Source: Chloranthus sessilifolius (Eukaryota > Streptophyta > Magnoliopsida > Chloranthales > Chloranthaceae). From it: a stretch of 64,000 bases of DNA. Below are positions 21,555 through 63,017 of this stretch, one piece after another; position 1 is the stretch's first letter; every line of letters begins with the position of its first letter. The position numbers and the translations under genes are program-made. The notes beneath the pieces are model-generated. The model searched no databases. It worked only from the letters and a program-made list of their open reading frames with translations, and was not told where the DNA came from. Location of the stretch: positions 3,562,088 through 3,626,087 of the forward strand of contig CM037593.1 in NCBI GenBank assembly GCA_021018995.1, written 5' to 3'.

Positions 21555-21925
21555 TGACGGGGACGTTGACATTGTAGACATCGGATGCGCACCGTTTCGC
21601 ATGTACCGGCATCGGAAGAAGCGGAACGGAAACGGAAACCAGAACCAGATTTAAAGAATCAACGTGCTGGAGCAATGCACAGTCGAGCGACCGACACCTG
21701 GAATCGATCGATCGACTGTGTCCAGTGAGGGATTTCATTCAAGCGACATATATATATATATATAAATCAATCGATCGAGTACCACTTTTGATCGATCGAT
21801 TGAATTGTGACCAGAGACCATATAATTTTATATATATATATATATATAATCGATCGATCGAGGCGTCTCGTCGATCGATCGATTTTTCGCGAACATGAGT
21901 TCCGTCAAAATTTGAAGTTGAGTCG
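21555..21925 (+). repeat. First LTR (partial) of the chromovirus
   Basis: Begins TGACGGGGACGTTGACATTG and matches 26,601-26,935 (TGACGGGGATGCTGACATTG). Both contain runs of the theme atcgatcgatcga and a short TA tract. Confidence 0.8.
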
Positions 21926-24900
21926 ACCAGCTAAACGAGGATGATGAGTACCTCGAACCACACCGTGAGCGTAATGGTCCACGTTTCGAACACAATGGTT
22001 ACCAACATGATCGGAACCGGAATCATAGGATGGATCATCGTGGAGATGACGACCCGGAAGGGAAACTCCTTAAAAACGTCCGAGTTAAGTTCACAACCTT
22101 CGATGGAAGCTTAGACCGTAAACTCTTCCTCGATTGGTTATCCGACATGGACCAGCACTTTGAGTGGTTTGGCATGAGCGATGAGCGATGTGTCAGGCTC
22201 GCCAAGATGAAACTCATTGGCCAAGCCCGACTCTTTTGGGTAAACATTGAACGCATCAGAATGAATGCGGATTGTGCTCCCATTACCTGTTGAGAGGACA
22301 TGAAGGAGCGACTTACAGAGAAGTACGTTCCTTCCTCATACTACCATCGTTTCCTCAATCAATGGCAAAATCTACGCCAAGGTAGTATGCCCGTAGAGGA
22401 TTACATTGGAAAATTTGAAGAATTCATGATGAGAGCCAAAGTATCTGAAGACCCTCAAGTCACTCTATCCAGATTTTGCACCGGATTGAGGTTTGACTTG
22501 CAACAAGAGTTGGTCTCTCACCCCGTTGAGACTCTTGCCGAATGTTACACCGTCGTTCAAGACCTTGAACAATATTTGAAAATGACGGTGGTGAGGCGAT
22601 CTGAGTCTCATATCAGTCAACCTCGTACTGGCGAGGTGAGGAGTAGTGCTGGAAACCCACTCACCAAACCCACACAATCCACATTCGATATGCAGTTTGA
22701 CAAAGGAAAGGGCGTGGTACGAGAATACTTGAAGGGCGGTTCTCACATCAAGTGTTACAACCGTCAAGGGTTGGGACACTATGCCGCCCAATGCCCTAAG
22801 AGAAACCCGCAAAGGACTCTCTTTGTTGAGGGAGAAGGCAACGAGGATGACAGAATTTTGAAAGAAGAAATCTTTGAGCTGGATGCCGCACCTAGTGATG
22901 CCAGTGGTCGAGCTCTTGTTGTGAGGTGTGCCCTTGCACAGCCACAACCGGGTAAAAAGGAGGATTGGCGTAGGGAGAATATCTTTCACACCTTCGCCAA
23001 ATGCAGAGAGAAGAGTTGTAAGATCATCGTGGACAACGGAAGTTGCACCAATGCAGTGTCAACACATACCATAACCCACTTAGGGCTTACACTCAAAGCC
23101 CACCCGAGATCATACAAAGTTGTGTGGGTTGACTCTTCCTCCATTCCTCTCAGAGGTGTCGCGTACCTATTCAGCTAGGTTCGTATTCGGACACCTTGTG
23201 GTGCGATGTGGTGCCAATGGATGTTGGTCACATCATCTTAGGGAGGCCAGGGCTTTATTACTTGAACGTGACTATTTTTGGTCGATCTAACATTTGCACG
23301 TTCATTCATAAAGGCAAGAAGATAACTATTAACTTTTAGCTCCCAAAGCACCGCCGACCAACAAAGTCGAAAAGGACATTCAGTCTAAGACCATTAACAT
23401 TGTGAGTCCTTCGGAGTTTGAAAAGGTGTCGTTAGACGAGAGTGTAGTGTACGTTGTCGTCACCATTGAGAGTACCACCGACTTCGTAAGGGAGTACCCC
23501 AAGGAGGTTGAGCCGATAATGAAAGAATTTGCAGATGTCTTCCCCGAAGACTTACCCAATGAGCTTCCTCCCATGCGTGACATTCAACACGCGATCAATT
23601 TGGTTCCCGGATCTACCCTACCAACCCTGCCACATTACAGGTTAAATCCGGTTGAGCACGTCGAATTGACTCGGCAAGTCAATGAACTCCTTCAGAAAGG
23701 GTTCATCCAAGAGAGTCTAAGCCTTTGTGTCGCACCCGCCCTACTCACTCCTAAGAAAGATAGTACATGGTGCATGTGTGTGGATAGTCGTGCAATCAAC
23801 AAGATTATGGTTAAATATCGATTTCCCATACCGAGGCTCGGCAATATGCCTGATATGATGGTTGGCGCCACTATCTTTTCCAAAATAGATCTTAAAAGTC
23901 GCTACCATCAAGTTCACATTCACCCTAGCGATGAGTGGAAAACCGCCTTCAAGACCAAAGATGCTCTTTATGAGTGAATGGTCATGCCTTTTGGGCTATC
24001 GAATGCCCCGAGCACATTCATGAGGCTCATGACCCAAGTGTTGAGGCCGTTTCTCGGCAAATTCCTTGTCGTATACTTTGGCAACATCTTGATTTACAGC
24101 CATGACAAAAAACAATACATTATCCACCTAAGGTTGGTTTGTGAAACCTTGAGGGGAGAAAGGTTATATGTGAATCTCAAGAAATGCACATTCATGCAAC
24201 AATCCGTTGTATTCTTCGGATTCATTGTCTCGACTGATGGGATGGTTGCAGACCCCGAGAAGGTTAAGGTCATTGTGGAGTGGTCTAAACCTAGGAATAT
24301 TTATAATGTCTGTAGCTTTCACGGATTGGCCACATTCTGTCGTCGTTTCATCCGAAACTTTAGCACCATTATAGCTCCTATTACCGATTGAAAAGGGAAG
24401 TTTCAATGGAGCAGAGCCGCGACGAAAGCCTTTGCCGAAATAAAGGATAAGATGTCTAGTGCACCCGTCATGCGCCCACCAGACTTTTCTAAAGTCTTTG
24501 AAATAGCCAGTGACGCGTCGGTTGTGGGAATAGGCGGAGTGCTTAGCCAAGAGGGCCACCCAGTGGCCTATTTTAGTGAGAAACTTAATGAAGTAAAGCA
24601 AAAATATTCCAACTATGACAAGGAGTTTTATGTGGTCGTCCAATCTATTTGATATTGGAAGCATTACCTTAGACCGCAGGAATTTGTGTTATTTTCTGAC
24701 CATGAAGCCTTACACTTCCTTGCTTTACAAAAAAAGTTGAACCCGAGGCACGCAAAGTGGGTTGAGTATCTTCAAGGGTTCACATTAGTGTTAAAGCATA
24801 AGGTGGGTGCCGATAACAAGGCAGCTGATGCACTTAGTCGTCGAGTGGCGACTTTACAATCTATGAGCACCGAGGTCATCGAATTTGAGTAGTTGAAATA

Positions 24901-26063
24901 AGATTATCCTAAGTGCCCATATTTCGGGGTGGAATACGTTGCTCTCTTGGAAAATCCAAGCTGTGTCAATTCCAATAATACCCTGCAAGATAGGTATTTG
25001 TTCGAAGGAAATCGCTTGTGCATCCCTCGCACCTCATTGCATGACTTTCTCATTTGGGAGTTACATATCTGAGGGATTGTCGAGCATTACAAGCGCAACA
25101 AGGCCATTTCGCTCGTGGAGGATTGGTTTTATTGGCGTAGCCTTATGAGAGATGTTTCACAGGTCATGAAACAATGTCGTACATGCCAAGTGGCCAAACA
25201 AGATAAACAAAATACTGGTTTGTACACCCCATTACCTGTGTCGCACACCCTGTGGCAAGACATCTCTATGGATTTCGTGCTCGGAGTTCCCAAAACTCAA
25301 CGGAAACACGATTCCATTTTTGTGGTGGTTGACTGCTCTCTAAGATGGCCCACTTCATACCCTGCTCCAAAACCTCCGATGCAGCTCACATAGCCAAATT
25401 ATTTTTCGGAGAGGTTGTGCGTCTCCATGGGTTACCCAAGACTATTGTGTCGGATCAGGACGTGAAGTTCACCAGTTACTTCTGAAAAATTTTATGGCAC
25501 ATGATGGGTACCATACTTCAGTTTTCTTCGGCCTATCATCCTCAAACCGATGGTCAAACGGAAGTCACCAATAGGAGCTTGGGAAATCTCCTTCGTTGTC
25601 TAATCGGTGATCATATTAGGAGCTGAGATTCTGCGTTACTAATAGCCGAGTTTGCATACAACAACTCTGTCAATAGGTTCCTAGGCATGAGTCCGTTTGA
25701 GGTCATACATGGGCATAGGTCAAGGACACCATTAGATTTAATCCCCATGTCTGCATCATATCGAGTGTCTGAGTCCGCGAACGCTTTTGCACAACACATT
25801 CATAGTTTGCACGTCGAAATTAGACAAAAGATTAATTCAAGCAATGAACATTACAAGATAACTGCGGATGCGCGTAGGCACTTCAAAGAATTCCAAGTCA
25901 GGGATCACGTGATGGTTCGGGTTAGGCCTGAACAATTCCCATCGGGAGTCGCAAAAAAGCTCCAAGCCCACAGAGCTGGGCCTTTTAGAATTATGGCAAG
26001 GAGCGGACCTAATGCATATGTTCTCGAACTTCCGCCGAATATTGGGGTCAGTTCTACTTTCAA

Positions 26064-26485
26064 TGTGGAGGACTTAGTCCCTTCTTTGAGCTCAACCCCA
26101 CCAACTCCTTCCAAGCAGCCCTGAGCCCAAATCCCAACCCTACCCTGCAACCTCTACCATTCCCTTCTCCACGCAGGCAGAGGAGAGATGAAATCGAAGG
26201 GATACTTGATGATTATGCGGTATCCACCCATGGTGGAGGATTTCAGAAATACTTGGTTAAGTGGATGGAAAAAATGTGGAGGACTTAGTCCCTTCTTTGG
26301 GCTCAACCCCACCAACTCCTTCCAAGCAGCCCCGAGCCCAAATCCCAACCCTACCCTGCAACCTCTACCATTCCCTTCTCCACGCAGGCAGAGGAGAGAT
26401 GAAATCGAAGGAATACTTGATGATTTTGCGATATCCACCCATGGTGGAGGATTTCAGAAATACTTGGTTAAGTGGATGGAAAAGA
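26064..26485 (+). repeat. 211-bp tandem repeat near the chromodomain
   Basis: The phrase tgtggaggacttagtccctt starts at 26,064 and again at 26,275, giving two adjacent, nearly identical 211-bp copies. They span the integrase tail and the beginning of the chromodomain of the fossil chromovirus. Confidence 0.85.
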
Positions 26486-26600
26486 CGAATTCCGAGAACA
26501 CATGGTTAACTGAAGACGAGGTGCGACGCCTACCCCGACATGCTCGATCGCTATCACCATGCCGCTTCATCGGTGAGAAGCATTTTCGGCCCGGGAGAAT

Positions 26601-27150
26601 TGACGGGGATGCTGACATTGTAGACATCAGATACGGAATGTTTTGCGTGTACCGGTGTCGGAAGAAGCGAAACGGAAACGGAAACCAGAACCAGACTTGA
26701 AGAATCAACGTGCTGGAGCAATGCACAGTCGATCGATCGACACCTGGAATCGATCGATCGACTGTGTCTAGTGACGGATTTCATTATAGTGACATATATG
26801 TATATATAAATCGATCGATCAAGTACCACTATCGATCGATTGAATTGTGACCAGAGATCATATAATTATATATATATATATATATAATCGATTTTTTGCG
26901 AAAATGAGTTCCGTCAGAATTTGAAGTTGAGTTTTAAGGGCAAACTTGTCTTTCTTTTTTGTTTATTTTTGTTTTAGGGTTTTATTTTAAGACCTCCTAT
27001 ATAAGGTCATTAAGAAAAACAATGTAATTAGTTTTTGATTAATGAAAAAGAGTTTTTGCTTGTGTACTTGAGATGAGCCTCCACGAAGAGTGATTCTTCG
27101 CTTCCCGAAAAGGGTTTGGTGTGAATCCAAGGGTGTGAAACTCAAAATCT
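26601..27150 (+). repeat. Second LTR of the chromovirus
   Basis: Starts at TGACGGGGATG and includes a TATA-like ctatataagg near 26,998-27,007 and a likely polyadenylation region (aatgtaatta, attaatgaaa) near 27,023-27,046. The 3' limit is uncertain because the first LTR lacks the corresponding part. Confidence 0.7.
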
Positions 27151-28623: not shown

Positions 28624-28799
28624 AAAATGATCATATGACTCAAGTCATGAAATATACTTCCTTGACTCTAGCAACCATTGGCTGCATGTCAGTATGTCAC
28701 ATCAAGTGACTTAAAAATTCAACTTGATGTGACATGCAGCCAATGGTTGCTAGTGTCATGGAAGTATATTTCCTGACTTGAGTGAGAGGATCATTACTC
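28622..28799. mobile_element. Foldback MITE, about 178 bp
   Basis: Two inverted arms of about 80 bp surround a short loop. The left contains agcaaccattggctgcatgt; the right contains its reverse complement acatgcagccaatggttgct, and pairing extends through ctcaagtca and atatacttcc. A secondary inverted pair (gtcacatcaagt / acttgatgtgac) forms the loop region. The element sits between TA tracts, so a TA-target (Stowaway-like) origin is possible, but the duplication cannot be told from the microsatellite. Confidence 0.75.
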
Positions 28800-29131
28800 T
28801 ATATATATAATGGCCTCTAGCAACACCTTCAAAAATCAAAGGTCAATTAACATAAAAAAAGAAACGGAAGAAAATCATTTTTGTGAAAGATTTGTGTGCA
28901 TTTGCAATAATTCTAAAATATTGTTTTGGTCTGTACATGCAAATGTATGCCATGTGATAATAACAATGTAGATATGTATATTACCCAACATTAGAGCATT
29001 ATAATAGCTAACATGTAAGCCACTGGATTAAATAATTGATACCTATACCTGACTGGTGCAATATTTGACAAAATATCACCTAACTAGCTACAGAAAAAAT
29101 AATAATAATAATAAATAAAGGTTTGACATGC

Positions 29132-29230
29132 CTGACGCAATAACGAACTCCCCATCAGGAGTTGCCTTAACTTTCGTTGTTGCAGTCTCGAACCTCAAGT
29201 CCTGGATCAAATCCACCCTTTGCATGTAGT
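29132..29230 (-). CDS. NOL10: NOL10/Enp2-like nucleolar protein, exon (upstream of pair)
   Basis: The minus-strand exon starts after a TTTAG acceptor at 29,231 and reads YMQRVDLIQDLRFETATTK, then VKATPDGEFVIASG. This is the N-terminal part of NOL10/Enp2, where the phrase LIQDFEFP...IKVTPDGQ..ATG is conserved, just before the YPPQVKVYEL segment found in the exon at 19,368-19,459. The donor reads CAG|GCATGT, so the intron would be of the GC-AG class, a rare but known plant class. The reading phase across the junction is exact. The first exon, with the family's usual initiator region, was not found up to 64 kb; it may be outside or lost. There are no stops in the exon. Confidence 0.75.
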
Positions 29231-30059
29231 CTAAATATGAAGACATCAGCAAGCAAAGCCAAACAGTGCAAGTCATAATGAGATCCAATGCTACCATTGG
29301 GAAAAGTTCACACACCTATCATTTTTGTTTTAATGAAAGAAAACGAATAATTTATCATAATGTACACATTATTGCCAACTATCTGCCACATAAGAACAAG
29401 GAGTCGTCGTAGGTATCAGGTTATAACCAGCTAAGAGATAAGAAGAAAAACCGGATACATTGCACAAATTAGAGAATCTCGGCTTATGATGCTTCAAGAA
29501 ACAATTACAAAATAAAAAACCAGGCTTATTATGCTTCAAGAAACAATTAAAAAATAAAAAATCATAAAATTTTACTCTTCAAATTCAAGTCATCCCCATA
29601 ACATACCCTACATGAAGTAGAATCATTCTGTGGAGAGAAAAAGACTGAATTTGCATTCACAATCTTTTGTCATTTGTAAGGTATACATCGTTCCATCTCC
29701 AACCAAATCAAGGTAGACGTCTGCTTTGCAGTGGAGAGAACTAATACCAAATCATCATCTATGGATTTATATATATATACCAACATAATCCAATCCACCA
29801 AATGTCCTGAACTGGTGAAGCTAAAAATTCTTAAAACCAAGGTCCAATACACATGTTTGAAAGGCTATAAATAATTTAATTACATGAGGAAGTAGCAAAG
29901 TCCTTTACTACTAGCAAAGTCCTTTCTCGATTGGATGACAGAATCTGAACCCGTGACACTAATAATAGTGGAATCAAAGGTGCATAGTCTACCATTTTCT
30001 AAGAAACATTTTGGTGTTGATTCCATTAGTTTAATTCTTAATAATAATTGTTGAAAATT
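29231..30059. other. Upstream of NOL10-like exon, nothing recognised
   Basis: AT-rich sequence with a 33-bp repeated phrase near 29,484-29,560 (ttatgatgcttcaagaaaca, ttattatgcttcaagaaaca). No first exon of the NOL10-like gene was seen. Confidence 0.4.
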
Positions 30060-30214
30060 ATAAATAATAAAGATAGGACAGGGGTACTCTAGTGGAATCA
30101 AAGGTGCATAGTCTACCATTTTCTAAGAAACATTTCGGTTTTGATTCCATTAGTTTAATTCTTAATAATAATAGTTAAAAATTATAAATAATAAAGATAG
30201 GACAAGGGTACCCT
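29967..30214. repeat. 124-bp tandem duplication
   Basis: The segment beginning agtggaatcaaaggtgcata at 29,967 recurs at 30,091 with few changes. It includes the tail region of the neighbouring SINE candidate. Confidence 0.85.
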
Positions 30215-30330
30215 GGAGGCCTGGGCTCATGGACCAGCAAAGATGTCTGGTCAATTCTCATAGGGGTGTCGCATGAATGGGTGGGGACTTGAACAAAACC
30301 AATGGCAAAAGATAAACCTAAATAAAACCA
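30170..30330 (-). mobile_element. Candidate tRNA-derived SINE
   Basis: On the minus strand GTTCAAGTCCC (30,284-30,294) matches the RNA polymerase III B box (GGTTCRANNCC). It is followed by a GC-richer body and an AT-rich tail. No clear A box or target duplication was seen, so the call rests on the B box, body and tail. Confidence 0.3.
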
Positions 30331-30729
30331 TGCAATCAACTGTGCATAAATGGACGGTGAAACCTCATTCACCGTTCATTTGGCGTGTGGTTCAGCACAG
30401 TTTTTTAATATTTTACTTTTTCAATGATGACGATCATCAGGGCACTCATTCATGTACAACCTGATCACGTGATTAAGTGATCGGGTACATAGCAGCCAAA
30501 TGAGTGTGGCACCAGCCATCTTGGCTGGTTCATGGGTTTATTTTTATAAATAGTAATATTAAAATTTACAAATAAATAAAAAAACATAATTGAACTCAGA
30601 AATAAGGCCAACTTTCCAACATATGCAAGACAGATGTGATAAAACAAGACATTGCCCACAGAGATCATTCTATAAGCATAGCACAACTCAAGTCAAGCCC
30701 GCTTGGGAAGCATGACTGACAAGATTCTG

Positions 30730-30732
<3 letters not shown>

Positions 30733-30774
<42 letters not shown>
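30733..30774. repeat. (TA)n microsatellite
   Basis: About 20 uninterrupted TA units. Confidence 0.95.
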
Positions 30775-30775
<1 letters not shown>

Positions 30776-31087
30776 CCTATAAAAAGTCCATAACTAACGG
30801 ACAAATTATCCCTTTCGGTTTTTTGGTTCTATCAGTATAAGACAAAATGGGCAAAACACATACGGCAAAAGAGACCAGAAAACTAAGAGTCTTTTAATCC
30901 TCTCTCTTTAATACTAATAGAGAAAAACAAAACGCTAGAGAAAAACAAAACGCTAGAGAAAAACAAGACCCTTCGGTTCTATCTAATAAAACACAAGACC
31001 CCTCGGTTCTATCTCAAAGTTATCAAAGTCTCCATCTTTTAAGGCAAAAAAGTAGTCTTGGCTGCTTTAGTTTCTGCCGATTCTCAA

Positions 31088-31560
31088 ATTGAGTTCTCAA
31101 GAGTTCTTAGACTCAAAACCCTGCTGGTTTTTATCCACAGAGCTCAGGTTTATTTGGGTTTTTTTTTTTTAAATCCCTTATGTTTTTCACTTCTTTTTGT
31201 TTCCTTTTATCTTTTCTTTTGTAGAAATCAAGTAGATCCTGAAAGCCTGAAAAAGGATTGAGATATCAAGAGTTCTTAGAATCAAAACCTTGCTGGTTTT
31301 TATCCACAGAGCTCAGGTTTATTTGTGTTTTTTTTTTTAAATCCCTACTGTTTTTCTATCCACAGATCTCAGGTTTATTTGGGTTTTTTTTTTTTAAATC
31401 CCTTCTGTTTTTCTCTTCTTTTTGTTTCCTTTTATCTTAGGTTTATTTGGGGGTTTTTTTTTTAATCCCTACTGTTTTTCTCTTCTTTTTGTTTCCTTTT
31501 ATCTTTTTTTTTGCAGAAATCAAGTAGATCCTGAAAGCTTGATAACAGATTGAGTTCTAT
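31088..31560. repeat. T-rich imperfect tandem duplications
   Basis: The phrase ctggtttttatccacagagc followed by tcaggtttattt occurs at about 31,122 and 31,293, with shorter echoes near 31,360 and 31,440. Near 30,830 and 31,562, ctatcagtataagacaaaat and ctatcagtacaagataaaac repeat the same leader. The region is a stepwise duplicated leader/intron ahead of the AIL fragment. Confidence 0.75.
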
Positions 31561-31889
31561 CAGTACAAGATAAAACGAGCAAAACACATGAGAACCACCC
31601 AGAAGACCTTCCGGTTCAGTGTTTTTTTGGGTTCTTCTCTTCAAAGCGCAGGTATGTTCGTTTCTCAAATTTTCTCTTTGTTATTTTTTTTGGGTTTTTT
31701 TGCATCTGAATTTTTTTTTAATCTCCAATATTCATACCTGTTTTGTGTTTTTTGCATCTGAAATTTTGTCTTTATTTTTTTCTTAGGTTTTTTTCATCTA
31801 AAAATTTAATTGGTCTTTTGGGTTTTGGAGGTTGGGATTTTTTATTTTTTTTGTTTTTCTTATATATATTTATCTATAATCTCTCGATT

Positions 31890-32005
31890 TTCAAGGACAA
31901 AAGGAGGAAAGGAGAAAAGCCATCAAAAAACTCTATTGAAACAGTGCCTAGGAAGTCCATTGACACATTTGGGCAAAGAACTTTTATCTACCGTGGTGTA
32001 ACAAG
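31890..32005 (+). pseudogene. Captured AINTEGUMENTA-like (AP2) exon fragment
   Basis: The frame reads ETVPRKSIDTFGQRTFIYRG then VTR, ending at a donor AAG|GTTTAT. The phrase R/K-K-S-I-D-T-F-G-Q-R-T-S-I-Y-R-G-V-T-R is the hallmark start of the first AP2 DNA-binding repeat in the plant ANT/AIL/PLETHORA transcription factors, which act in meristem and organ growth. Here S is changed to F before IYRGVTR. The remaining AP2 repeat sequence (HRWTGRYEAHLWDN) is not found, so only the fragment up to the intron was kept. It lies in the putative Helitron on the same strand as the other captured pieces. A lone AP2 exon without its partner exons cannot encode a functional factor. Confidence 0.7.
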
Positions 32006-32491
32006 GTTTATTTAGAGGTAAACTCGTGAAAAAAAATCTAATTTATTTATATTTTCCTTTGTTGGGATTTAGATTCTGTTCATTATTGAGTAAACGGAAA
32101 AAAAAATCGTATTCTTTTTTCTCTTATTATTTTTTTTTCTTCTTATTTGATTTTATTTTTAATAGACACCCTTATGATCCTAATGGTTTTTAGAGCATTG
32201 AGACATTTTGGATTTTGGATTTTATTTTTCAAATGATTCTTTGGGATGACCTTCCATCATCCAGATTCACGTTTTTTAAAATCATTGTTGATGGATTTTT
32301 CTGAATTTTTTGGGTTTTTTTTTTTGGAGATTTTGTCATTTTTTTTTTATAAATTTTGATGGGCTTTGTGTTCTGTTTTTTGGTTGGGTTTTTTTCTCTC
32401 GATTTTGATGGGTTTTCTTGGTTTTTTTTTAATCATTTTTTATGGGTTTTCTCCTGAATTTTTTAGGATTTTTTTTTGGGAGATTTTCTCT

Positions 32492-32645
32492 CTTTTTTTT
32501 ATATGTCCATCGGTGTTCGGGCCAGCTTGCGCGCACCTCGACTAATCCCATGGGGCCCTGGAGCTAACGACCGGGTAATACTCCAGTGGCCCTGAGGGGA
32601 CTCGAACTGGTGACCATTGGGGAGTAAAACCCAAGGCCTGGGCTT
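32492..32645 (-). mobile_element. tRNA-derived SINE of the angiosperm type
   Basis: On the minus strand AGTTCGAGTCC (32,598-32,608) is a B box. The 3' half contains GATTAGTCGAGGTGCGCGCA then AGCTGGCCCGAACACC, a 3' module that I recall as widely shared among angiosperm SINEs, followed by GATGGACATAT and an A-run. The 5' part with the A box is missing or eroded (5' truncation). It sits in T-rich intron-like sequence inside the putative Helitron, so it arrived with the captured DNA or after it. Confidence 0.75.
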
Positions 32646-32910
32646 TTTTTGGATTTGGATGGGTTTTTGTTTTTGGTTGATTTTGTTGAGTTCTTTTAAA
32701 GGGTTTGATGGGTTTTTTTTAATCAATTTTAATGTATTTTTCAAAGAGTTTTCATAGGTTATTTTTTTCGATTTTTATGGGTTTTTTTTTTTTTATTTTG
32801 ATTTTGTTAGGATTTTTTATTCATATATTTGGATTTTTTAATGATTTTTTTTTTATATATTAATTTTGAGGTTATTGAACATGATTTTTTATTGTTCTCT
32901 TTCCATGTAG

Positions 32911-33005
32911 GATACTTCTCAGAGACAATTATGAATCAGGGTTCAGGGTTCATGTTTATACTATGATCGTTGATTTCGATCATCATCTTGTCGATCAACC
33001 GCAAG
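32911..33005 (+). pseudogene. Unidentified exon-like stretch in the Helitron
   Basis: After an acceptor (catgtag) an open 95-bp stretch reads LLRDNYESGFRVHVYTMIVD then FDHHLVDQPQ and ends at a donor CAAG|GTAATT. The splice sites and coding-like composition make it a likely captured exon. I do not recognise the protein. Confidence 0.4.
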
Positions 33006-33252
33006 GTAATTTTAAGATTTGTATTATTCTAATTTTTTTCTTTTAGTTTTATGATGGAATTTGGGTTTTATTGCTAGGCTTTTTTGTGATCAGAGACGAG
33101 GTTGAGAGGTCTCAACGACTCACCAGACTCGAGGGAAATTTTCTTTCTTTCTTTTTTTTCTTTTCGACTTTTTTCATCTGGGTGGGTTTTTTTTTCAAGT
33201 TTGATTAGTTTTTATAATGTTTTGGTCTAAAATTGAATTGGGTTTCTGTATA

Positions 33253-33440
33253 GAAAGCTTAATAACAGGCTTGCTAATTAGAGTTGTTTCGTGATATTTC
33301 GACTGAGAGCTTTTTATCAGGGAAAAATGGAAGAGACGATTCTGATTTATGACTATCTCCCTAACAGGACACTGTATGATCTTCTGCATGGGAAGTGCAC
33401 TTGACCAATTTACAACTGGTGCATAGCATTGACTAACTAA
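33253..33440 (+). pseudogene. Receptor-like kinase fragment
   Basis: Following an acceptor-like ctgtatag, the frame contains KMEETILIYDYLPNRTLYDL then LHGKCT. This matches the kinase-hinge segment of plant receptor-like kinases, usually E..LIYEYMPN.SL...L. After a stop the reading resumes in the same neighbourhood with NWCIAL, recalling the WxxRLxIA motif. The piece is a small part of subdomains V-VI only, with stops, and cannot be functional. It lies between the unidentified exon and the NUDT9 exons in the putative Helitron. Confidence 0.5.
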
Positions 33441-33908
33441 TGGTTCATAGATAATAAAAAAATTTAGAATCCACTTTTCAATATTATCTATCTCCATCAT
33501 ACTAGGAATGTGCTCTGATACCATGTGATAAGAACCTGTGTATCATAAATAAAAAAGAGAATTAAGATAGAGAAGGGATCGATTCAAAGTGATTGGCCTT
33601 CCTATGACGAGCCTCGTTATTATTCAAATTCCTTCCTAATATAGTAAATAAGTGGTTCCTCTTTATAGAGTATATCAGCGGTATGATACATTAATTGAAT
33701 GCAGATCAGGCAGTAAAAATTTATGATTAGCAAAAAAAAAATATTAAGGAAGATGCCTTATTTTTCAATGTACTCATCTCAAAACAAAATCATTTTTCAT
33801 GATTCCTGTCTATTTGTTTATGGGATGTTATTTTAGATTCTAAGAGGCGTGATTAGATCAGACAACCGATAAGATGCATTAAAGGAAAAATCTGAAATCG
33901 GGTTAGTT

Positions 33909-34145
33909 GTTCCTTACATGATCTTGCCCAAAAACACGTGAACAACTTAAAAAGTGATAAGCTTACTCAATTGAATTTACTGGAAAACATCTGAAATGAT
34001 GACCTGTCTCTATTCTTGTTAACAGTGTTCCTTACATGATCTTGCCCAAAAACACGTGAACTTAAACAGTGATAAGCTTACTCAATTGAATTTACTGGAA
34101 AACATCTGAAATGATGACCTGTCTCTAAAATGATGACCTGTCTCT
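33909..34145. repeat. 118-bp tandem duplication
   Basis: The phrase gttccttacatgatcttgcc starts at 33,909 and again at 34,027, followed by the same sequence with small deletions. A shorter triplication of atgatgacctgtctct lies at its end. Confidence 0.85.
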
Positions 34146-34219
34146 ATTCTTGTTGTGAATAGTGTTTTTCCCAAAATTATGTTCTACCATCAGATTTGCA
34201 CCTAAAAACGATATACCCA

Positions 34220-34222
<3 letters not shown>

Positions 34223-34276
<54 letters not shown>
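34223..34276. repeat. (TC)n microsatellite
   Basis: About 27 TC units. Confidence 0.95.
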
Positions 34277-34279
<3 letters not shown>

Positions 34280-34709
34280 CTTTTTAATCACCCTAATTAG
34301 GGTGTACTTCTCTTTAGTCAGTTTATTAGTTTCTACTTAAACTTTAGAGAAGAGAATTGATTTTTTAACCAGGCCTTTAGGTAATATATGTAACGTAACT
34401 TTAATTTAATATGGCTAAACTAATCTGACAGCTAAAGTCTATATGGTTATATTCACCTCACAGACATGAATATATGCTTTAGGCATCTTACCATATCAAG
34501 TTATCGACTAGAAATTGAGCCATATTCCTTTATTGTACAATATTACCAATAAGCAACAAGCATAAATAACAGAAATTGAAGAATTTCCTGTATCAAGAAA
34601 AGGAAGTGACTTGAGCATCTTACATGTTGTGATTTACTTGAAGAGATGCTAGGTTCTGTAAATTCTTGATATGTGAAGGTATTTAATCACTTGTCTATTT
34701 TTACGTGAA

Positions 34710-36496
34710 GGTTAATGTGAATTTCAGTCCAGCTTATTACAAGATTGCTCATCCGGATATTAATTTGGAAGCAATCATAGATGAGGTGGGTAATTTGTCG
34801 CGATTCTGACTACTATTTTTGAGTATTCTAAGCTAATTGTATGCTCCTCTTTAGACATGATTATGTTTAAACTTCTCATCTTTGATAAGAAACAATTGAA
34901 TTATTTTATTGTCTGAACTCTGAAACCCTTGTTGGTATGCAAAAGTCTGGAAAGCGTATGACCAAGTAGAAGATTATGAACATTTTTCAGTGATTTCTAA
35001 TTTTACTGTTTATGCTTCACACAAGCTTACTACAACTTGCGGCAAATCCCATAAAAATTTATTTGATTTTTATTGAATTTTTTTTTCTTTAATATTTTAC
35101 GAGGTAAGAGCTCATGAAGTTATGGATGAGGTCTTCGTTAGTAACTAAATAAGAGGAATCACTGTAATGACGTTGGCTTAGATTTGAGTAGAAATTTTCT
35201 ACTAAACTTTACATAATTTAGAAACTAAAGGGTTCTTCTTGAATTATTAGACTTCACACTTAACTATCCATGCAATAATTTGCCTTAAATCAGTTTTATC
35301 AGAAACTTTAATCAAATTACTCCAACCCCTTCAGGTTAAACAGCTTTGCTTCTTGGATGTGACTGCATTATTACCCACATAATCAATGCATATTGGTTCC
35401 CAATGTAGATCGAGTCATTTTTAAATTCTTTTACATGATTAATATGGTCTCCATCAGATCTTATTGGATATTCTTTTGCATTTTGTAGATATAGAATCAG
35501 CGGATTCATGAAAATGCATCACTATATAATGGTACGAAGTTTAGGGTATGTGAGCCTGCCTCCGTATGCAAACTTAAATCAATAGTTTCTTTATGCTAAC
35601 CTTCGAAAAGTGACCTTTTGTAAGTTCTCGCACTTCCATTATTCCCCCTCCGGTCATTGGGTTGTTTAGTGTAGGTAATTCTCTAAACACGCCAAGATGA
35701 TTTAGAAAATACAGGCTGTTGTAAAACAAAAGAGTTGTTTTTTTTAAATGTTCTCTTTGTTCACATATAAGTAACTGTTGGAATCTCCTCTGTCATGGAG
35801 AAGCAACAGATTGACCCAAAGTATGGGGATCAAAGACAAATGGTAGAATTTTACACTGTTCATGATGCAAGTGGAGATTCGATGAAAATAGAATAGAGTT
35901 TTTTCGAAACGGTTATTTATGAACTTCATATTTTGATTTTTTTTTCCTTAAATCAGGTTGCATTTAGATGTGCAACCCATGTAGGGTCTCAATCTAACTA
36001 GATCTTAGTGAAAATTGTTTCAAGGTCCCACTTGAAAACGACTTTGAGTGGGCACACAGCTAAAAGCAAGTTAGCCACCTTCTCATTTTTATTATCTGCA
36101 AAATGGAAAAAACCTTGCTTTTTTTATCGGTAAAAGAAAAATTTATTAAAAAAGGGAAGAGAACTACATAGCTGAGCTGCAGCAAGAAGCTAAGAGCAAC
36201 AGGCTGAAAGGCCAGAAAGACAAGAAAAAAATGACAAAAACCAAAACCATGGACTTTTTGTTAGAATTGCATTCTTTCTTTTCTACTTATTAGAATTTTA
36301 TTCATGAAGTGTCAAGTTTATGAAGTGTCAAGTTTGACATTACACATCACTTTGATAGCTTTGTTGGGAGTGAACATATCTCTATCTCTCGATTGGCTTT
36401 ATGCATTTTGCAGTATGGAGGACATTGCTTGCATGATATAGGGGATTCTAACCAAATGCCACATGTATGCCTTCACCTTGGTTTGACAGATTACAG
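34710..36496 (+). pseudogene. NUDT9: Captured NUDT9-type Nudix hydrolase exons 1-3
   Basis: Three exons with consensus splice sites follow the N-terminal part of plant Nudix hydrolase 9. The first (about 34,710-34,785) reads VNFSPAYYKIAHPDINLEAI, donor GAG|GTGGGT. The second (35,489-35,545) reads NQRIHENASLYNGTKFR after an in-frame TAG where the family has Trp. The third (36,414-36,496) reads YGGHCLHDIGDSNQMPHVCL then HLGLTDYR and ends at CAG|GTGTAT. Family members continue with a TFVGTN-type phrase and the Nudix box further on; neither is present, so the catalytic part was not captured. Introns are retained, so this is DNA-level capture. The intron after exon 3 contains an internal imperfect duplication (about 36,600-36,680 and 36,740-36,830) and runs to the Helitron end. 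Confidence 0.75.
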
Positions 36497-37249
36497 GTGT
36501 ATCTCTCATTATGCCATTTTTTAGTGAGGTTTACTATGTGATGGGTTCTTCTTTCTGAATTCTGATTATGTTAGATGCAAAGTTAGGGCGTGTTCTGTCT
36601 AGAGCTAAAATCTAGCATTGCCAATTGTGTTAGTGCAGTCATAAGATTTGCTACAAGAGCAATAGTAATATAATTCTAAATTCATCACTTGCTATTTTAC
36701 GATTAGCCAAATGCAAGTTTATGGACAAGGTACCGTGTAGAACTTAAGCTAAGGTACCTAGCGTTGTCAATTATGTTAATGCAAATATGCAATCATAAGG
36801 TTTACTATGAGAAAACAGCAGTGATGTATGATTTTCCTATATATATCAGTTTCTATTTTGAAAACCCTTTATGCTGTCTCTTTAATATATATATTGTCAC
36901 TTAAAACATGCGTTATCATGTTTTCTGGATTACCATGAGGAGCTAGCATCAATACTTAAACAAGTAAATATAGTATTCTATAAAGTTGATATAGTATTCA
37001 CTGGTACTTTTTACTAGCAACAAAAAAAACAGATGTTACTCGCTAGAAATGATTCTGCACTAGCCAAAAACCTGTTGAATTCTGATGAAAAAGGATTCAT
37101 CTCTCCTAACCATCATTGAAACACCCGAATGATGTTTAAATGATCTTTCACCATTACTGGTGTAAGACCATTTAAACATTGTCCCTAAGATCATTTCATT
37201 GATCTTCTTTCAATTGGGTTTTCAAAAAATTAGACTTATAAATAAGTTG

Positions 37250-37283
37250 CCTGCACGTGCATCGCATGTGCAGGGCCCACTAG
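37250..37283 (+). other. Helitron 3' terminus (hairpin plus CTAG)
   Basis: Hairpin CTGCACGTGC / GCATGTGCAG with one mismatch, then nine bases ending CTAG at 37,280-37,283, then T. It closely resembles the terminus at 61,213-61,242 in layout and in the GTGCA-rich stem. Confidence 0.8.
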
Positions 37284-37985
37284 TATATATATATATATAT
37301 ATATAAACAACATTTACCATAACATAGTTAAGTAAATATACGAACTATATATATATATAAACAACATTTACCATAACATAGTTAAATAAATATACGAACT
37401 ATACCGCGCACCTTTATCTTTCCGAAGGGATTTCAGCTTCTTAGGAGGAAGCCATGTGGCCAAAGATCGTTGGCCAGATATTGAATACATCTTTACACCA
37501 TTTATGGAAGTAGACTTCATACTACCTCCCTGATTAGCCATGCTTAGTAGATATAGAATTACTCCAATGGAAAAACTGCATTAAAAAAAAAATCAAAAGA
37601 TATATAAGCTCATACAATAGCGCATAGATTAGTAAAACAATTAATTGGTTCTGGTCAATAGGAGAAACAGAACAAACATTCCGCAATCTTCAACCAAAAA
37701 AACAAGGAAAGGATAAGAAAATTCAATTTTTAATATGAAATTCTATTGAAAAGATGAGTTCTTGAAAGAGGGAAGCATGAAATAAACTCAAATAGTAAAT
37801 TTCAAATTTTAGAGCACGGAAAACAAATCAAAGGAAAAAGGAAACCTACCCTTGTGGATGAGTCTTAGCTACTGCAGAACCCCTGCGAAGAAAATAAGTC
37901 AATTAGGGGAGATTTGTGGCAAATTATGGGGTATGCCATGGTTGTCAATCTCTTACAATACACGATACGATACGCAATGCTATAG
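37284..37985. other. Short intergenic segment after Helitron
   Basis: Contains TA runs and a roughly 60-bp tandem duplication (ataaacaacatttaccataa at about 37,303 and 37,358). The rest is AT-rich and without recognised genes. Confidence 0.5.
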
Positions 37986-38080
37986 AAAATAAGTCAATTA
38001 GGGGAGATTTGTGGCAAATTATGGGGTATGCCATGGTTGTCAATCTCTTACAATACACGATACGATACGCAATGCTATAG
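37891..38080. repeat. 95-bp tandem duplication across LINE/MITE junction
   Basis: The unit starting aaaataagtcaattagggga at 37,891 repeats at 37,986. It spans the LINE target site, the first LINE bases and the left end of the hAT MITE. The duplication must therefore postdate both insertions. Confidence 0.85.
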
Positions 38081-38716
38081 AAAACGATGCGTATCTATCA
38101 TGTGTACCGTATTTTACTGTATCTTACGATATACGTTGCGATACATGATACAAACGATACATGTGATTTCGATTAAAACCACTTTTTTGTTTAAAAAAGT
38201 ATCACTTATTAAAGAAACAACAAGAATAAAGAAAGAAGAGGAAGATGTCTACTAGAAGAAAGAAAAAAAAATTTAAATGATAATTTAACTACTAAAGAAG
38301 ATGGTGGTGTTGATATTGGGGATAGAAATGAAGAATGAAGACTTGGAATTTTTTATTTTTTACATTTTGTAAAAAAAATTGTGATTATAAACTGGTAATT
38401 TTAAGAAACAAGGTTCGAATTTTCTTTAATTAGAATTTGGGACTAGAGAGACACATCATACAAATATATAAAAGTATACAATACGCACTCACACCACACT
38501 TATACTTGAGCAGCTATAGAGTTCCTTTTTGTATAATGAAAATTGAAAAGTCATTGATTTTATGCGACTAGATTTTTATTTTATAAATCCATCCAACGAA
38601 ATGTTTTGTTCTATTTATTTGATTTAAATTTTAACTTCTAATGTGACAGATGATGGAAATGAGTGACTTTGACAGATAGTATTTAAAATATGATCATAGA
38701 TTGTTACATATTTTTT

Positions 38717-38787
<71 letters not shown>

Positions 38788-39230
38788 ATATATTTATAAA
38801 AATCTAAGTTTATCTTACGATACTCGAGACAATACGATACACGATACTCGAGACAATACAATACACAATACGATACACAATTTGACAACCTTGGGGTATG
38901 CAACGATGTGGGCTCTTTGGCTAGAACGAAATAGTCGGGTGTTTAGAAAAATTGCTAGGCCTTTCCAGCTTGTGGTTACTATGGTAAAGGATCTTCTGCT
39001 ACAATAGCTGCTAACTCGTGGAAGTAGCGATGGGGATGATAGTGCCAGTGGGACAATTTGCTTCGATATTAGAGGGGCCTCCTACTCCTGCCTTGGGTGT
39101 CTCGGTGATTCTTCCTTTGCGGTTGCCTATATCTCCGGGGTCTCTTGGTGAGGTAGTTTTTTTGGTCTTGTACCTTTTTGCTTGGTTTTAGCATATGCTT
39201 TGATTTGTTACCGATCAAAAATAAATAAAT
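38001..39230 (+). pseudogene. 5'-truncated LINE (L1-type) tail
   Basis: Apart from the nested MITE, the frame reads GYATMWALWLERNSRVFRK, the W-A-L-W-x-E-R-N-x-R-x-F signature of the C-terminal region of plant L1 ORF2. A 3' UTR and an aataaataaataaata tail follow. The phrase aaataagtcaatta stands before the LINE (37,987-38,000) and after its tail (about 39,231-39,244), a plausible target duplication. Only the last few hundred bases of an L1 are present, so it was dead on arrival. Confidence 0.7.
38032..38893. mobile_element. hAT-type MITE, 862 bp, nested in the LINE
   Basis: The tips are CATGGTTGTCAATCTC and, in reverse, CAAGGTTGTCAAATTG. The element is flanked by the perfect 8-bp repeat GGGTATGC (38,024-38,031 and 38,894-38,901). 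Removing it restores the LINE phrase ggggtatgcaacgatg. Subterminal motifs are cgatac/gtatcg variants. It contains a long (TA)n tract at about 38,724-38,785. Confidence 0.85.
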
Positions 39231-52895: not shown

Positions 52896-53999
52896 ACATA
52901 GTTTAAAATTCTAAAAATTACACTTTTTTATATTTACGCGATGTAAAGCAATATCTATGTCGTCTTATTTGAAGGCCACAATATAAAGATTGATGGTGCC
53001 AAAGATTGGAACAAAAAAAGGCGATATCGCCTCTTTAACCAAGGAAAAAATGATTGCCTAGATCTCAGAATCTAACACAAATCAATGGGTCAAATTTTAA
53101 TTATAGAAATCATGTGGCTCCATTATGCTAAGACAATTTTCAAATGTGCCCATTGTCCCACATCTACACCGTTAAAAGCACAATATCATGAATTTAACAC
53201 TCCTAAATTTGTGTCTTAAACTTTGACTATGCTGATATAATCTCATTCACGATATGGTGCACCCCCTGCCGATCCTATAGCTATCCTTACCTAATATCAA
53301 TAGAAACAATATTTGCCAACTTAAGAATCAAGTCTATCATCGTCCAAATAGTTGACAATTTGATTAAAGGAATTTATTCACATTTCCTCATAAAGTAGCT
53401 AGCATGCAAGGCAATAATATCCATTAGTCAACAAGTCAAAGTAACATTAAATGTGTCCACAAATAAAGAAAACTTTCCATGTATTTTAATATTTTAAGTA
53501 ATCGAGCAATATTAACAACATATAGTAACTCTTCTTTCAAAGAAAGGAATTATATATACAATAATAAAGAAATATGATAACCTCAATGAGCACGAGAGAA
53601 AAAGGCTATTACTTATTTATATAATGAAGGAGTAAGTGCAAGGATCAAATGTAGTGTTCTCTACAAGAACCTAAGATTGATCCTTTCTTTTTGCTACAAA
53701 TGTATCAAAGATCAATAAGAATAGAAAAAGAACAACAAGAGTAGCTGGTATCTGAGATAGACTTCAATTTTTATCTTTAATATTCGTTCTATGGATATTA
53801 ATAATTAATATTCTTCTAGAGTGGATGATTGCTAGTCTCAAGAGTTACTCTCTTTCTTTCAATATATTTTAGAATTAGCAATTTTGCCATAAAGGTACTC
53901 TCTCCTTCCTTATTTTCATCACCTTCAAAGAAACTTACAAAGTTAAAAAAAATCCCTATGTGAAAGATTGGGCTGAAAAATGATCTTCATCAACTAATA
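52896..53999. other. Helitron 5' flank or leader, nothing recognised
   Basis: AT-rich DNA without coding stretches. The 5' terminus of the following Helitron should lie here but I could not identify it. A remnant similar to one arm of the 50,372 MITE family (aaaaatgatcttcatcaact) lies near 53,975. Confidence 0.4.
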
Positions 54000-54133
54000 C
54001 AAATAGTTGATGGTTTTTGTTAAAGGTGGCCTCTAAGACAACTCTATCTATGTGATTATTTCATATATAATTATAGAAATTATGTGGCTATATTTTTTTT
54101 TATAATAACATATTATATGATCAACATGATTAG

Positions 54134-57100
54134 ATGAAGATAAGCGTTGATTATACTATTGCTTGTCAAAAACGAAAACGTGAATATAATCGACGACGAT
54201 ACAATGACTTCACAAACAAGCAGAAGGAAGCTCGAATTCAAAATATCACGAAACAAAAAAAACAAGCTACACAATCTTTACTCAAAGCTCAAATAAGACC
54301 TTTGACTCAACAACAAGGTTTGTAGTGTTCTTTTATGTTTATAGTCATTTAGTTTAACCAATTAAGAATTGACATAGAGGTTTGACATCCGTTATTTGAT
54401 GCAAATAGGTTTTATGACAATAGATCATGGTGATATCAATGAACCAACATATGAGCCAATGTGTTCTGAATTGCATCAGCTTTAATATGTTGATAGTTGT
54501 ATTTATTGTGGTGCAAAGAAGTTTCAGTGTGAACCACCAACATTTTGCTGTTACAATGGACAAATTACTCTAGCCCCTACTACTGTTCCTGAAAATTTAT
54601 TAAATTTATTTACATCTCAAAACAATGAATCTATTGAGTTTCAAAGAAATATACGAGCGTACAATAATATATTCTCTTTTACATTATTTGGAGTACGTCT
54701 TGATAACGATATTGCAAATTCAAGATGCGGTGTATATACATTTCGAGCGCAGTGGCAAATATATCATAATTTACCGTCTCTCTTACCAATCAAGAATAAT
54801 CCTTGCTTTCTTTAATTATACTTTTATGATACTGAGAATGAAACTCAAAATAGAAAGGGGATAATACAAGAGGCAAACTTGTCAGAGTCTACTATTTTCA
54901 ACTTGATGAACATTCTTCGTGTAAATCCTTATGCTCAGTTCTTACGACGCTTGAAAGATATTTCATCGTTAGAAACATATAATATCTTGATCAAAAGCGA
55001 TGTCTAAGTTGATCAAAGAGTTTATAGTACATCATCAGCTTCACAAGTTGCAGCTATATGGATTGAATGAAATAATCCCAATGGAGTCCAAGAGAGAGAT
55101 ATCATAGTCCACGCACATTCAGGAAAATCTCATAGAGTTAAACACTATTTTGGTTGTTACAATCCATTGCAATATCCTCTTTTATTCCCATATGGAGAGA
55201 TTGGATGGCATCAAAATATATACAAGCGTGATACTCTAAATGGAAGTGGGACACAATTCAGTGAAAATTTAAATCGTGTTGATTTTACATCTAGGGAAGA
55301 TATATTTTATCAAGAAGGGGAAGGTAGTTACCCTTATATATTACATTATATCTATTATATGTTCTTAATGATTTATTTTATCAACTTTTATCTACTTGTA
55401 ATTTACAGATATAAAACGACAAAATCGTGGAATGGTATCATGCTGACAATACTACTCTTATAAATTTTAAATTCGAGATTTTGAGAATTCTATCATTTTA
55501 TGTGTCACACGATTGCTACAGCAATACGTTGTCGATATATACATAAAGTTAGAAACAACTCGATTAGACTTTTTCAGACAAAGACAATCTGCTATTCGAG
55601 CAGAATTATATCAAGGAATTGTTGATAGTATTTTGGCTGAAGAAAGAAGAGAGGTTAATGCGGGAACAAGAATTGTGCTTTTAGTATCTTTTATTGGAGG
55701 CCCTAGAGATATGCGTCGTAGATATCTTGATTCAATGGCTTTAGTTCAACGATTCAGAAAACCTGATCTTTTCATTACAATGACATGCAATCCTGAATGG
55801 AAAGAGATACAGGAGGTATTAAAATCAGGACAACTTACTCAAGATAGGCTCGATTTAGTAGCAAGAATATTTCGAGCAAAATTACATGACCCAAAAGAAT
55901 AAATATTTAATAAATCGATTTTTGGACAAGTTGCAGCACATGTTCATGTAATTGAGTTTCAAAAGAGAGGACTCCCACATGCTTATATTTTAGTTATAAT
56001 GCAGTCTGATTTAAAAATTACAAATCCATCTTTTTTTGATAAATTTGTTTGTGCGGAAATTCCAGATCCAGAAAACTATCGAAGTTTATATGAAAAAGTT
56101 ATAAAACATATTATACATGGACCTTGTGGAGAACTCAACAAGAAAAACTCATGTATGCAGAAGAGATCATGCAAAAGTCATTATCCTCGAAAATTTTCCT
56201 TAAAAACAATACAAGGCAAAGATTCATACCCAATTTAGAGAAAAGATGATGGGCGACAAGTCTTAGTTTACAATGCAATGCTAGATAATCGATGGGTTGT
56301 TCCTTATAACCCATATCTTTTGACAAGATATAATTGTCATATCAATGTAGAGATATGTTCCGATTTGAAAGCAGTGAAGCACCTCTATAAGTACATTTAT
56401 AAGGGTCATGATCGTATAACTGTAACGGTTGCAAGTGAAGATGGGGATAATGTTATAGATAAGATTCAATTATTTCGAGATGGAAGATGGGTGTCAACAC
56501 AAGAGGCCATGTGGAGAATTTTCGAGTTTAATTTAAACGAAATCTATCCCTCAGTCATTAACCTACAGTTGCATCTTCAAAATATGCAATCAGTATGTTA
56601 TTGGGAAAATTAAAATTTAGAATAATTGATGCAAACAGAGAATGTCTCCAAAACGTCATTAGCCGAGTTTTTTCAAATGAATGTCGTCAATGAAGAATCA
56701 AGAAAATATCTATATAGAGAATTCCCAGAACCTTATGTTTTAAACAAACAAAACAAGTGTTGGAGTCCTAGAAAGAAAATGATTGTAATTGGTCGAATCA
56801 ATGCAGCCAATCCTTCAAAAGGGGAAAGATATTATTTAAGACTGTTATTGAATCATGTACGAAGTTCAAAGTCATTTCAAGAGCTCTTACTTGTAGATGG
56901 AGTTCAATGTTCAACATTTAAACAATCTGCACAGAAATGTGGTTTACTTGAAAGTGATGAAGCATTTCAGAGTGTTTAAATGATGCTACCAACTTTCAAA
57001 TGCCATTAGAACTTCGTAGACTTTTTGCAACTATATTAGTCTATTGCGAACCCAATGATATTAGAAAATTGTGGAGTGAGCATTTTGAAGCTATGTCACA

Positions 57101-58704: not shown

Positions 58705-58814
58705 GTATGTGATATATTCTATATTGTTTTCTCGCATATATAGTTTTTAATAGATTAATATTTTCTTATTACTTCTAAATAATTATATCGATAAGTTTCA
58801 ATGTTTAAATGCAG

Positions 58815-60597: not shown

Positions 60598-60688
60598 TAC
60601 CCATTTTCAATTTAATTGAATTTTTTAGATAATACTTATTTGTTAGTTTTTATTTATTTATCCTCATGTTCTATATTGACAATACAAG

Positions 60689-60689
<1 letters not shown>

Positions 60690-60758
<69 letters not shown>
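60690..60758. repeat. (TA)n microsatellite
   Basis: About 34 TA units inside the 3' part of the Helitron. Confidence 0.95.
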
Positions 60759-60761
<3 letters not shown>

Positions 60762-61212
60762 TTTCTCTTGGATATTACCTTTCCATACGAAATATTACCC
60801 ATGTTCACTTGCAAAATACATATAAATATATATAGATCTGTCAAGGAGGTGATGCTGTCAATTCATTTCATTGCAATAGATAAGAAATTTCTCTTAGATA
60901 TTACCTTTCTATACGGAATATTACCCATGTTCACTTCCAAAATGTAGGGAGCGCTTCTGCCGTCCATGGGATCAAAGATCTAGTGGAGATCAATGTGGCA
61001 TCCAAAACACTATTTGAGTGCGATGGGAAGCATAAAGAGACAATTTAGATCAATTTCTATAAAAAAATTCAAATTCTTTTTAAAGCTTCTGTTAAAGTTT
61101 GACTAATTTTAATGGCTTTAATTTCAATGATCAAAAAATACATGGTGGAGATGAGTTTCCTAATTTTTTAATATTGAAATATCAAGATCAATCATTTAAA
61201 AGTCTTAATATC

Positions 61213-61242
61213 CACGTGCATTTGCACGTGCACTTTTACTAG
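61213..61242 (+). other. Helitron 3' terminus (hairpin plus CTAG)
   Basis: Perfect inverted repeat CACGTGCA / TGCACGTG with a 2-nt gap, 12-nt spacer, CTAG, followed by T. This is the rolling-circle termination signal layout of Helitrons. Confidence 0.88.
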
Positions 61243-62204: not shown

Positions 62205-62233
62205 CACAGACTTCTATGCATTGGAAGTCTGTG
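62205..62233. repeat. Hairpin at the border of the tandem array
   Basis: CACAGACTTC and GAAGTCTGTG form a perfect 10-bp inverted pair with a 9-nt loop; pairing extends outward with two mismatches. It stands exactly where the first array unit begins. Confidence 0.8.

Positions 62234-62948: not shown

Positions 62949-63017
<69 letters not shown>

What the first reader, a model, noticed from the sequence alone, without database searches (positions are those of the whole stretch)
30897..37284. Helitron that appears to have captured pieces of at least three or four unrelated genes
Seen: a hairpin plus CTAG end followed by T at 37,283, and upstream, all on one strand, an AIL/AP2 exon, an unidentified exon with splice sites, a receptor-kinase piece and three NUDT9 exons. 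Known: plant Helitrons acquire multiple gene fragments, usually in one orientation. Inference: one chimeric element that could be transcribed into a fused, exon-shuffled RNA. The 5' end (30,898) is the weakest part.
Basis: partly seen in the sequence, partly recalled or inferred. Interest (0 to 1): 0.85.

Follow-up and report, generated by a model that had tools for sequence, protein, structure and literature searches.

The report
Helitron carrying three captured gene pieces
This is a plant rolling-circle transposon (Helitron) that picked up pieces of three unrelated host genes and was copied to several places with them; it is a known kind of element, and this copy looks too damaged to make a fused protein.

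Summary
The main claim holds, with corrections. The window lies in a 2.17-Gb plant assembly. The 3' end at 37,283 (hairpin, CTAG, then T) is a family terminus with 40 scored genome matches, a lower bound. The proposed 5' end at 30,898 is wrong: the family begins 124 bp upstream, at TCTAT-AACCTATAAAAA (AACC = W30,774), where the window copy has a (TA)n run. The joined flanks match three diverged paralogous sites; the two fetched lack the element. So 30,774-37,283 is one insertion of about 6.5 kb. Parent loci were found for three pieces, each in sense and with intron sequence: an AIL gene on C9 (W31,933-32,214), an LRR receptor kinase on C4 (W33,303-33,410), a NUDT9/NUDT22-type gene on C2 (W33,409-36,894). 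The "unidentified exon" is a high-copy, mostly non-coding module. The chimera occurs in at least three independent insertions. A fused protein from this copy is not supported: a stop precedes the RLK piece, the RLK donor is lost, NUDT9 exon 3 has a nonsense codon. RNA could not be tested. New member of a known kind.

The parts
30733..30773 (.). (TA)n run at the 5' border, at the place where other copies have TCTAT
30774..30855 (+). conserved 5' terminal region of the Helitron family (AACCTATAAAAA...)
   Evidence: 42 matches to W30774-30897; 29 of 30 loci tried could be aligned
   Evidence: homology of L038 runs through it, W30756-30948
31633..31877 (+). family-internal block; before AIL here, after AIL in L029, L032, L034, L036, so the window copy is a mosaic
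31933..32214 (+). captured AIL piece: 73 bp of exon 1 (to 32005) and 209 bp of intron 1; parent on C9 (L037)
   Evidence: 81.6% over 283 columns, alignment; parent AP2 exons
32504..32638 (-). later insertion, SINE-like by eye (tRNA-like boxes recalled, not scored); absent from the C15 copy L026
   Evidence: ARAGORN reports no tRNA in the window
32905..33253 (+). high-copy module holding the 'unidentified exon' 32911-33005
33254..33303 (+). 50-bp piece of unknown origin, also at C6:6.52 Mb and C8:94.09 Mb
33303..33410 (+). captured LRR receptor-kinase piece: exon end (to 33390) and first 20 bp of its intron; parent on C4 (L093)
   Evidence: 92.6% over 108 bp, junctions, LRR and kinase domains in parent
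33409..36894 (+). captured stretch of a NUDT9-type (human NUDT22-like) gene with introns and upstream sequence; parent on C2 (L047)
   Evidence: 91.3%, 82.6% and 90.0% in three pieces; right limit; parent exons
34711..34785 (+). NUDT9-type exon
35489..35545 (+). NUDT9-type exon with TAG where L026, L047 and L048 have TGG
36414..36496 (+). NUDT9-type exon
37184..37283 (+). Helitron 3' terminus: hairpin 37250-37274, GCCCACTAG, then T

Best explanation
A non-autonomous Helitron, W30,774 (plus the adjoining TA run) to 37,283. It took up genomic DNA of an AIL gene, an LRR receptor-kinase gene and a NUDT9-type gene in steps, was copied by rolling-circle transposition with a RepHel protein supplied in trans, and has decayed in this copy. 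Shown: borders (5' one to within the TA run), family, sites without the element, parent loci, junctions, several insertions. Inferred: rolling-circle mechanism, the helper protein, the order of capture, and capture by template switching at short matches (2-bp overlap at one junction).
For: 3' end: CTAG in 26 and CTRR in 28 of the 29 rows, T next in 28. 5' end: 42 matches; 11 of 29 aligned rows keep TCTAT before AAC. Both ends in one orientation, 2.2-8.0 kb apart, at six other places: C6:1.94, C14:7.07, C15:12.79, C14:56.98, C12:103.96, C13:5.39 Mb. No terminal inverted repeat: best local score 14 against a mean of 14.2 in 200 shuffles. Joined flanks match three places as one stretch; the two fetched lack the element. 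Parents. AIL, module, RLK and NUDT9 pieces together also at C15:76.89 and C3:27.80 Mb, where homology stops at the 3' border.
Against: The window copy has no TC at its 5' end. The sites without the element are only 74-75% alike and TA-rich, so the cut is not placed to the base and a short TA duplication is not excluded. The C6 duplicate ends in CAAG and the C3:27.80 copy has lost the CTAG. The C15 and C3:27.80 copies show no recognised 5' end in the stretch held. No RepHel in L025-L048.
Confidence: 0.95

Rival explanations
1. The element is as first drawn, 30,898-37,283, next to unrelated DNA.
For: A|TC...TAATACTAATAG at 30,898 looks like a plant Helitron start, and a similar pattern stands at 53,284 before the window's RepHel genes.
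Against: Homology runs through 30,898 in L038; 42 matches to the 124 bp before it; those bases are missing from the two sites without the element.
Confidence: 0.02
2. The 3' end belongs to a Helitron, but the gene pieces are decayed host genes that lay here before.
For: Each piece keeps intron sequence.
Against: The same pieces occur together at C15:76.89 and C3:27.80 Mb without the window's flanks; the parents lie on C9, C4 and C2; the pieces are absent from the two sites without the element.
Confidence: 0.02
3. The chimera is an expressed new gene under selection.
For: All three gene pieces are in sense; several splice sites are kept; the AIL exon is open over 24 codons in the window and in the 9 other loci translated, parent included.
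Against: Nonsense codon in NUDT9 exon 3, lost RLK donor, stop before the RLK piece; AIL donor lost in the C15 copy; module frame open in 6 of 28 rows.
Confidence: 0.04

Closest known systems
Gene-capturing maize Helitrons (helA), PMC3288121 (abstract and sections 7, 8, 9 read)
   Same: CTAG 3' end, fragments of several genes from different chromosomes, stepwise capture, internal pseudo termini, loss of internal sequence
   Different: Other genome and other terminal sequence; (TA)n at the borders of many copies; one captured fragment (AIL) seen in 11 element places
Maize Helitrons with chimeric, alternatively spliced transcripts, PMC4528327 (outline with abstract and introduction)
   Same: Exons of disparate genes in one Helitron
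   Different: Transcription shown there, untested here; this copy has a nonsense codon and a lost donor
MuTAnT Mutator-like elements at TA microsatellites in Medicago, PMC4486113 (search listing only)
   Same: TA-microsatellite surroundings
   Different: Mutator-like class; the window element has Helitron-type ends

Membership tests
Helitron (plant, canonical) | 3' end CTRR | tested here: met
   CTAG in window; CTRR in 28 of 29 rows. Three further copies seen: L026 CTAG, L002 (C6) CAAG, L034 lost
Helitron (plant, canonical) | hairpin shortly before the 3' end | tested here: met
   11 pairs, 3-nt loop, 9 nt before the end
Helitron (plant, canonical) | 5' end TC | tested here: inconclusive
   TCTAT before AAC in 11 of 29 aligned rows; (TA)n or other sequence in the rest, the window included
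Helitron (plant, canonical) | insertion between A and T without target-site duplication | tested here: inconclusive
   T follows in 28 of 29 rows; A precedes TC in 6 of the 11 TC rows, T in the other five, which share one flank; sites without the element TA-rich and diverged
Helitron (plant, canonical) | no terminal inverted repeats | tested here: met
   first 100 bases against reverse complement of last 100: 130 of 200 shuffles score as high; window copy only
Helitron (plant, canonical) | RepHel in an autonomous partner of the same family | tested here: inconclusive
   none in L025-L048; a Helitron with RepHel pieces and another end lies at 53-61 kb of the window
Helitron (plant, canonical) | rolling-circle transposition | not testable with these tools
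   -
Gene-capturing Helitron | fragments of two or more unrelated host genes with parents elsewhere in the genome | tested here: met
   AIL C9, LRR-RLK C4, NUDT9-type C2

The most novel reading that the evidence does not exclude
The AIL exon-intron fragment, seen in 11 element places, makes this Helitron family a dispersed source of transcripts or small RNAs that act on the parent AIL gene, a developmental regulator. Captured sequences acting as siRNA reservoirs are described for maize (PMC13317346, passages seen); here nothing was tested.
Probability: 0.06. Interest if true: 0.55.

Novelty: new member of a known kind. Interest (0 to 1): 0.3.

Why it matters
It is a well-documented case of multi-gene capture within one genome: family termini, paralogous sites without the element, three parent loci and near base-level junctions. 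That permits tests of capture models (junction overlaps, order of capture, loss of splice sites afterwards). It also shows how a convincing internal look-alike can mislead 5' border calling. It does not add a new kind of element or mechanism.

Tried and rejected
Rejected: the 5' border at 30,898. The C6 copy as a border test: it is colinear over all 10 kb fetched, W28,760-39,055, so it is taken as a segmental duplicate. C2:162.94 Mb as one more Helitron copy, once further NUDT9-type exons were found downstream. C4:159.63 Mb as the NUDT9 parent: only W36,078-37,076 matches. Selection on the 'unidentified exon': over 27 rows against the window, differences at codon positions 1, 2 and 3 are 12.5%, 14.9% and 5.6%, and 8.8% in the adjoining intron; frame-shifting indels affect these counts.

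Led nowhere: the joined NUDT9-type peptide, the AIL exon and the RLK exon of the window gave no Pfam match up to E 1 and no PDB match below 0.02 (best for the RLK piece a plant protein kinase at 0.027). Rfam gathering scan of the window: 0 matches. ARAGORN: 0 genes. Paper search for Helitron, captured and AINTEGUMENTA: two papers, seen in the listing only. The species was not determined.
Full report
Setting. The window is C10:3,562,088-3,626,087 of a plant assembly of 2.17 Gb in 32 contigs; that it is a plant is read from its genes. Coordinates 'W' are window coordinates.

3' end. W37,230-37,283 folds into 11 pairs (one G-T) with a 3-nt loop at 37,250-37,274, followed by GCCCACTAG and then T. 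The last 101 bp match 40 places (40 scored of 143 candidates), of which I looked at the terminal letters of 30. In the 29 rows (window, 26 loci at places, of which one is L030, and L032, plus the window's own place counted once), 26 end in CTAG, 2 in CTAA, 1 in CCAG, and T follows in 28. Outside these 29, one search shows L026 with CTAG, the C6 duplicate with CAAG and the C3:27.80 copy without it. The 3' flanks shown mostly begin with TA repeats. In L076 and L083 the 3' end is followed by (TA)n and another copy's 5' end, so copies can sit head to tail.

5' end. L038 (C14:53.84 Mb) is homologous over W30,756-30,948. W30,774-30,897 gives 42 matches (40 scored of 78 candidates). Of 30 loci tried, 29 aligned (L031 gave none); 11 of 29 keep TCTAT directly before AAC (L067 by reading the row), the others, the window included, have (TA)n or other sequence there. 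A precedes TC in 6 of the 11; in the other five, which share one flank, T precedes. The family start is therefore taken as TCTAT-AACCTATAAAAA, with AACC at W30,774. The ends bear no inverted repeat.

Insertion. The joined flanks of the window copy match C10:22.24, C3:19.50 and C15:30.34 Mb as single stretches at 74-75%; two of the three were fetched and aligned and lack 30,774-37,283. At least ten further places match the 5' flank alone, so the flank is itself a repeat. The sites are TA-rich and diverged, so the cut is not placed to the base. The C6:32.17 Mb copy is colinear over all 10 kb fetched (W28,760-39,055) and is counted as a segmental duplicate.

Captured pieces. (1) AIL: W31,933-32,214 aligns to L037 (C9:106.74-106.75 Mb) at 81.6%, across the exon 1 donor and 209 bp of intron. 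L037 shows exons of a gene with two AP2 regions (by eye); one AP2 domain joined from its exons scores E 2.5e-13 in Pfam, while two single long exons of it gave no Pfam match up to 0.01. (2) RLK: W33,303-33,410 aligns to L093 (C4:121.84 Mb) at 92.6%; that gene has LRR and protein-kinase domains. From recall it resembles TMKL1; not tested. (3) NUDT9-type: W33,409-34,029, 34,026-34,223 and 34,238-36,894 align to C2:162.938-162.942 Mb at 91.3%, 82.6% and 90.0%. About 580 bp of C2 is missing from the window at 34,223-34,238; L043-L046 carry part of it. Further exons lie at C2:162.947 and 162.968 Mb. Joined parent exons match human NUDT22 in the PDB at E 1e-11; the Pfam NUDIX score is below its cut-off (12.2 against 21.1). 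The name NUDT9 is the plant name from recall. I saw five exons of the C2 gene and did not establish that it is complete. The RLK and NUDT9 pieces overlap by two bases (W33,409-33,410) at their join. The 50-bp piece and the RLK piece meet at W33,303.

The unidentified exon. W32,900-33,430 gave 52 matches (40 of 92 candidates scored); many end at W33,072, 33,088 or 33,253. In 28 rows from 24 loci (window, L025, L026, L034 and 20 fetched) the acceptor AG is kept in 27, the donor GT in 23, and the window's frame without stop in 6 (window, L025, L026, L104, L105, L106). It is a repeat module, in tandem at some places. Its origin is unknown, as is that of W33,254-33,303.

History. Of the 18 matches to the AIL piece, 11 places are element places (window, its C6 duplicate and nine others) and one is the C9 parent; the rest are second pieces of these or short partial matches. 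RLK joined to the start of the NUDT9 stretch is in 11 places. NUDT9 exon 4 is in 7 places, the C2 parent and 6 taken as element places, one of which, C4:159.63 Mb, is a partial piece without ends. AIL, module, RLK and NUDT9 pieces occur together in the window, C6, C15:76.89 and C3:27.80 Mb, thus in at least three independent insertions; C3 lacks NUDT9 exon 3. C12:74.03 Mb has NUDT9 and the 3' end but none of the other pieces in the stretch held. The C15 copy lacks 32,504-32,638, and the C3 copy has a long retrotransposon-like insert (Copia by eye) within its AIL piece. The block 31,633-31,877 lies before AIL in the window but after it in L029, L032, L034 and L036, so the window copy is a mosaic. 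This fits stepwise capture as described for maize (PMC3288121, sections 7-9). The order is inferred.

Coding potential. In the in-silico splice the frame through the AIL exon continues through the module and stops before the RLK piece; it has no Met codon within 31,722-32,005. The parent's RLK donor GTAAGT reads GGAAGT in the window and C6; all six other element copies checked keep GTAAGT, five of them after CATG or TATG. The AIL donor GT is kept in the window but lost in L026. NUDT9 exon 3 has TAG in the window and C6 and TGG in L026, L047 and L048; L034 gave no match there. A fused protein from this copy is therefore unlikely. RNA was not testable.

Against the reading. The window copy has no TC; no RepHel was found in L025-L048; the sites without the element are diverged; the C15 and C3:27.80 copies have no recognised 5' end in the stretch held.

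Verdict. A gene-capturing Helitron with three identified parents, a corrected 5' border and damaged coding pieces: a new member of a known kind.

Noticed in passing
53284-61242: A second Helitron in the same orientation with Helitron_like_N and PIF1 matches at 55.5-58.5 kb, candidate start A|TCC...TAATATCAATAG at 53,284 and end CTAG|T at 61,239-61,242; its end differs from that of the element studied.
   Followed up: partly
21555-26892: LTR-retrotransposon-like stretch: gag-pol-like ORFs (label by eye) between direct repeats 21,555-21,854 and 26,601-26,892, 89% alike; described only.
   Followed up: no
28760-39055: Duplicate of the region on C6:32.1645-32.1745 Mb, blocks 92-97% alike, reaching both ends of the stretch fetched.
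   Followed up: partly
L076, L083: Copies of this family head to tail: 3' end, short TA run, then the next 5' end.
   Followed up: no
L110, L113, L114, L115 (module of W32905-33072): The exon-like module occurs twice in tandem, about 190 bp apart.
   Followed up: partly
37304-37403: Tandem duplication of about 50 bp in the 3' flank.
   Followed up: no
62220-63973: Tandem repeats up to 98-99% alike near the window end, about 81% like 3,002-3,263.
   Followed up: no
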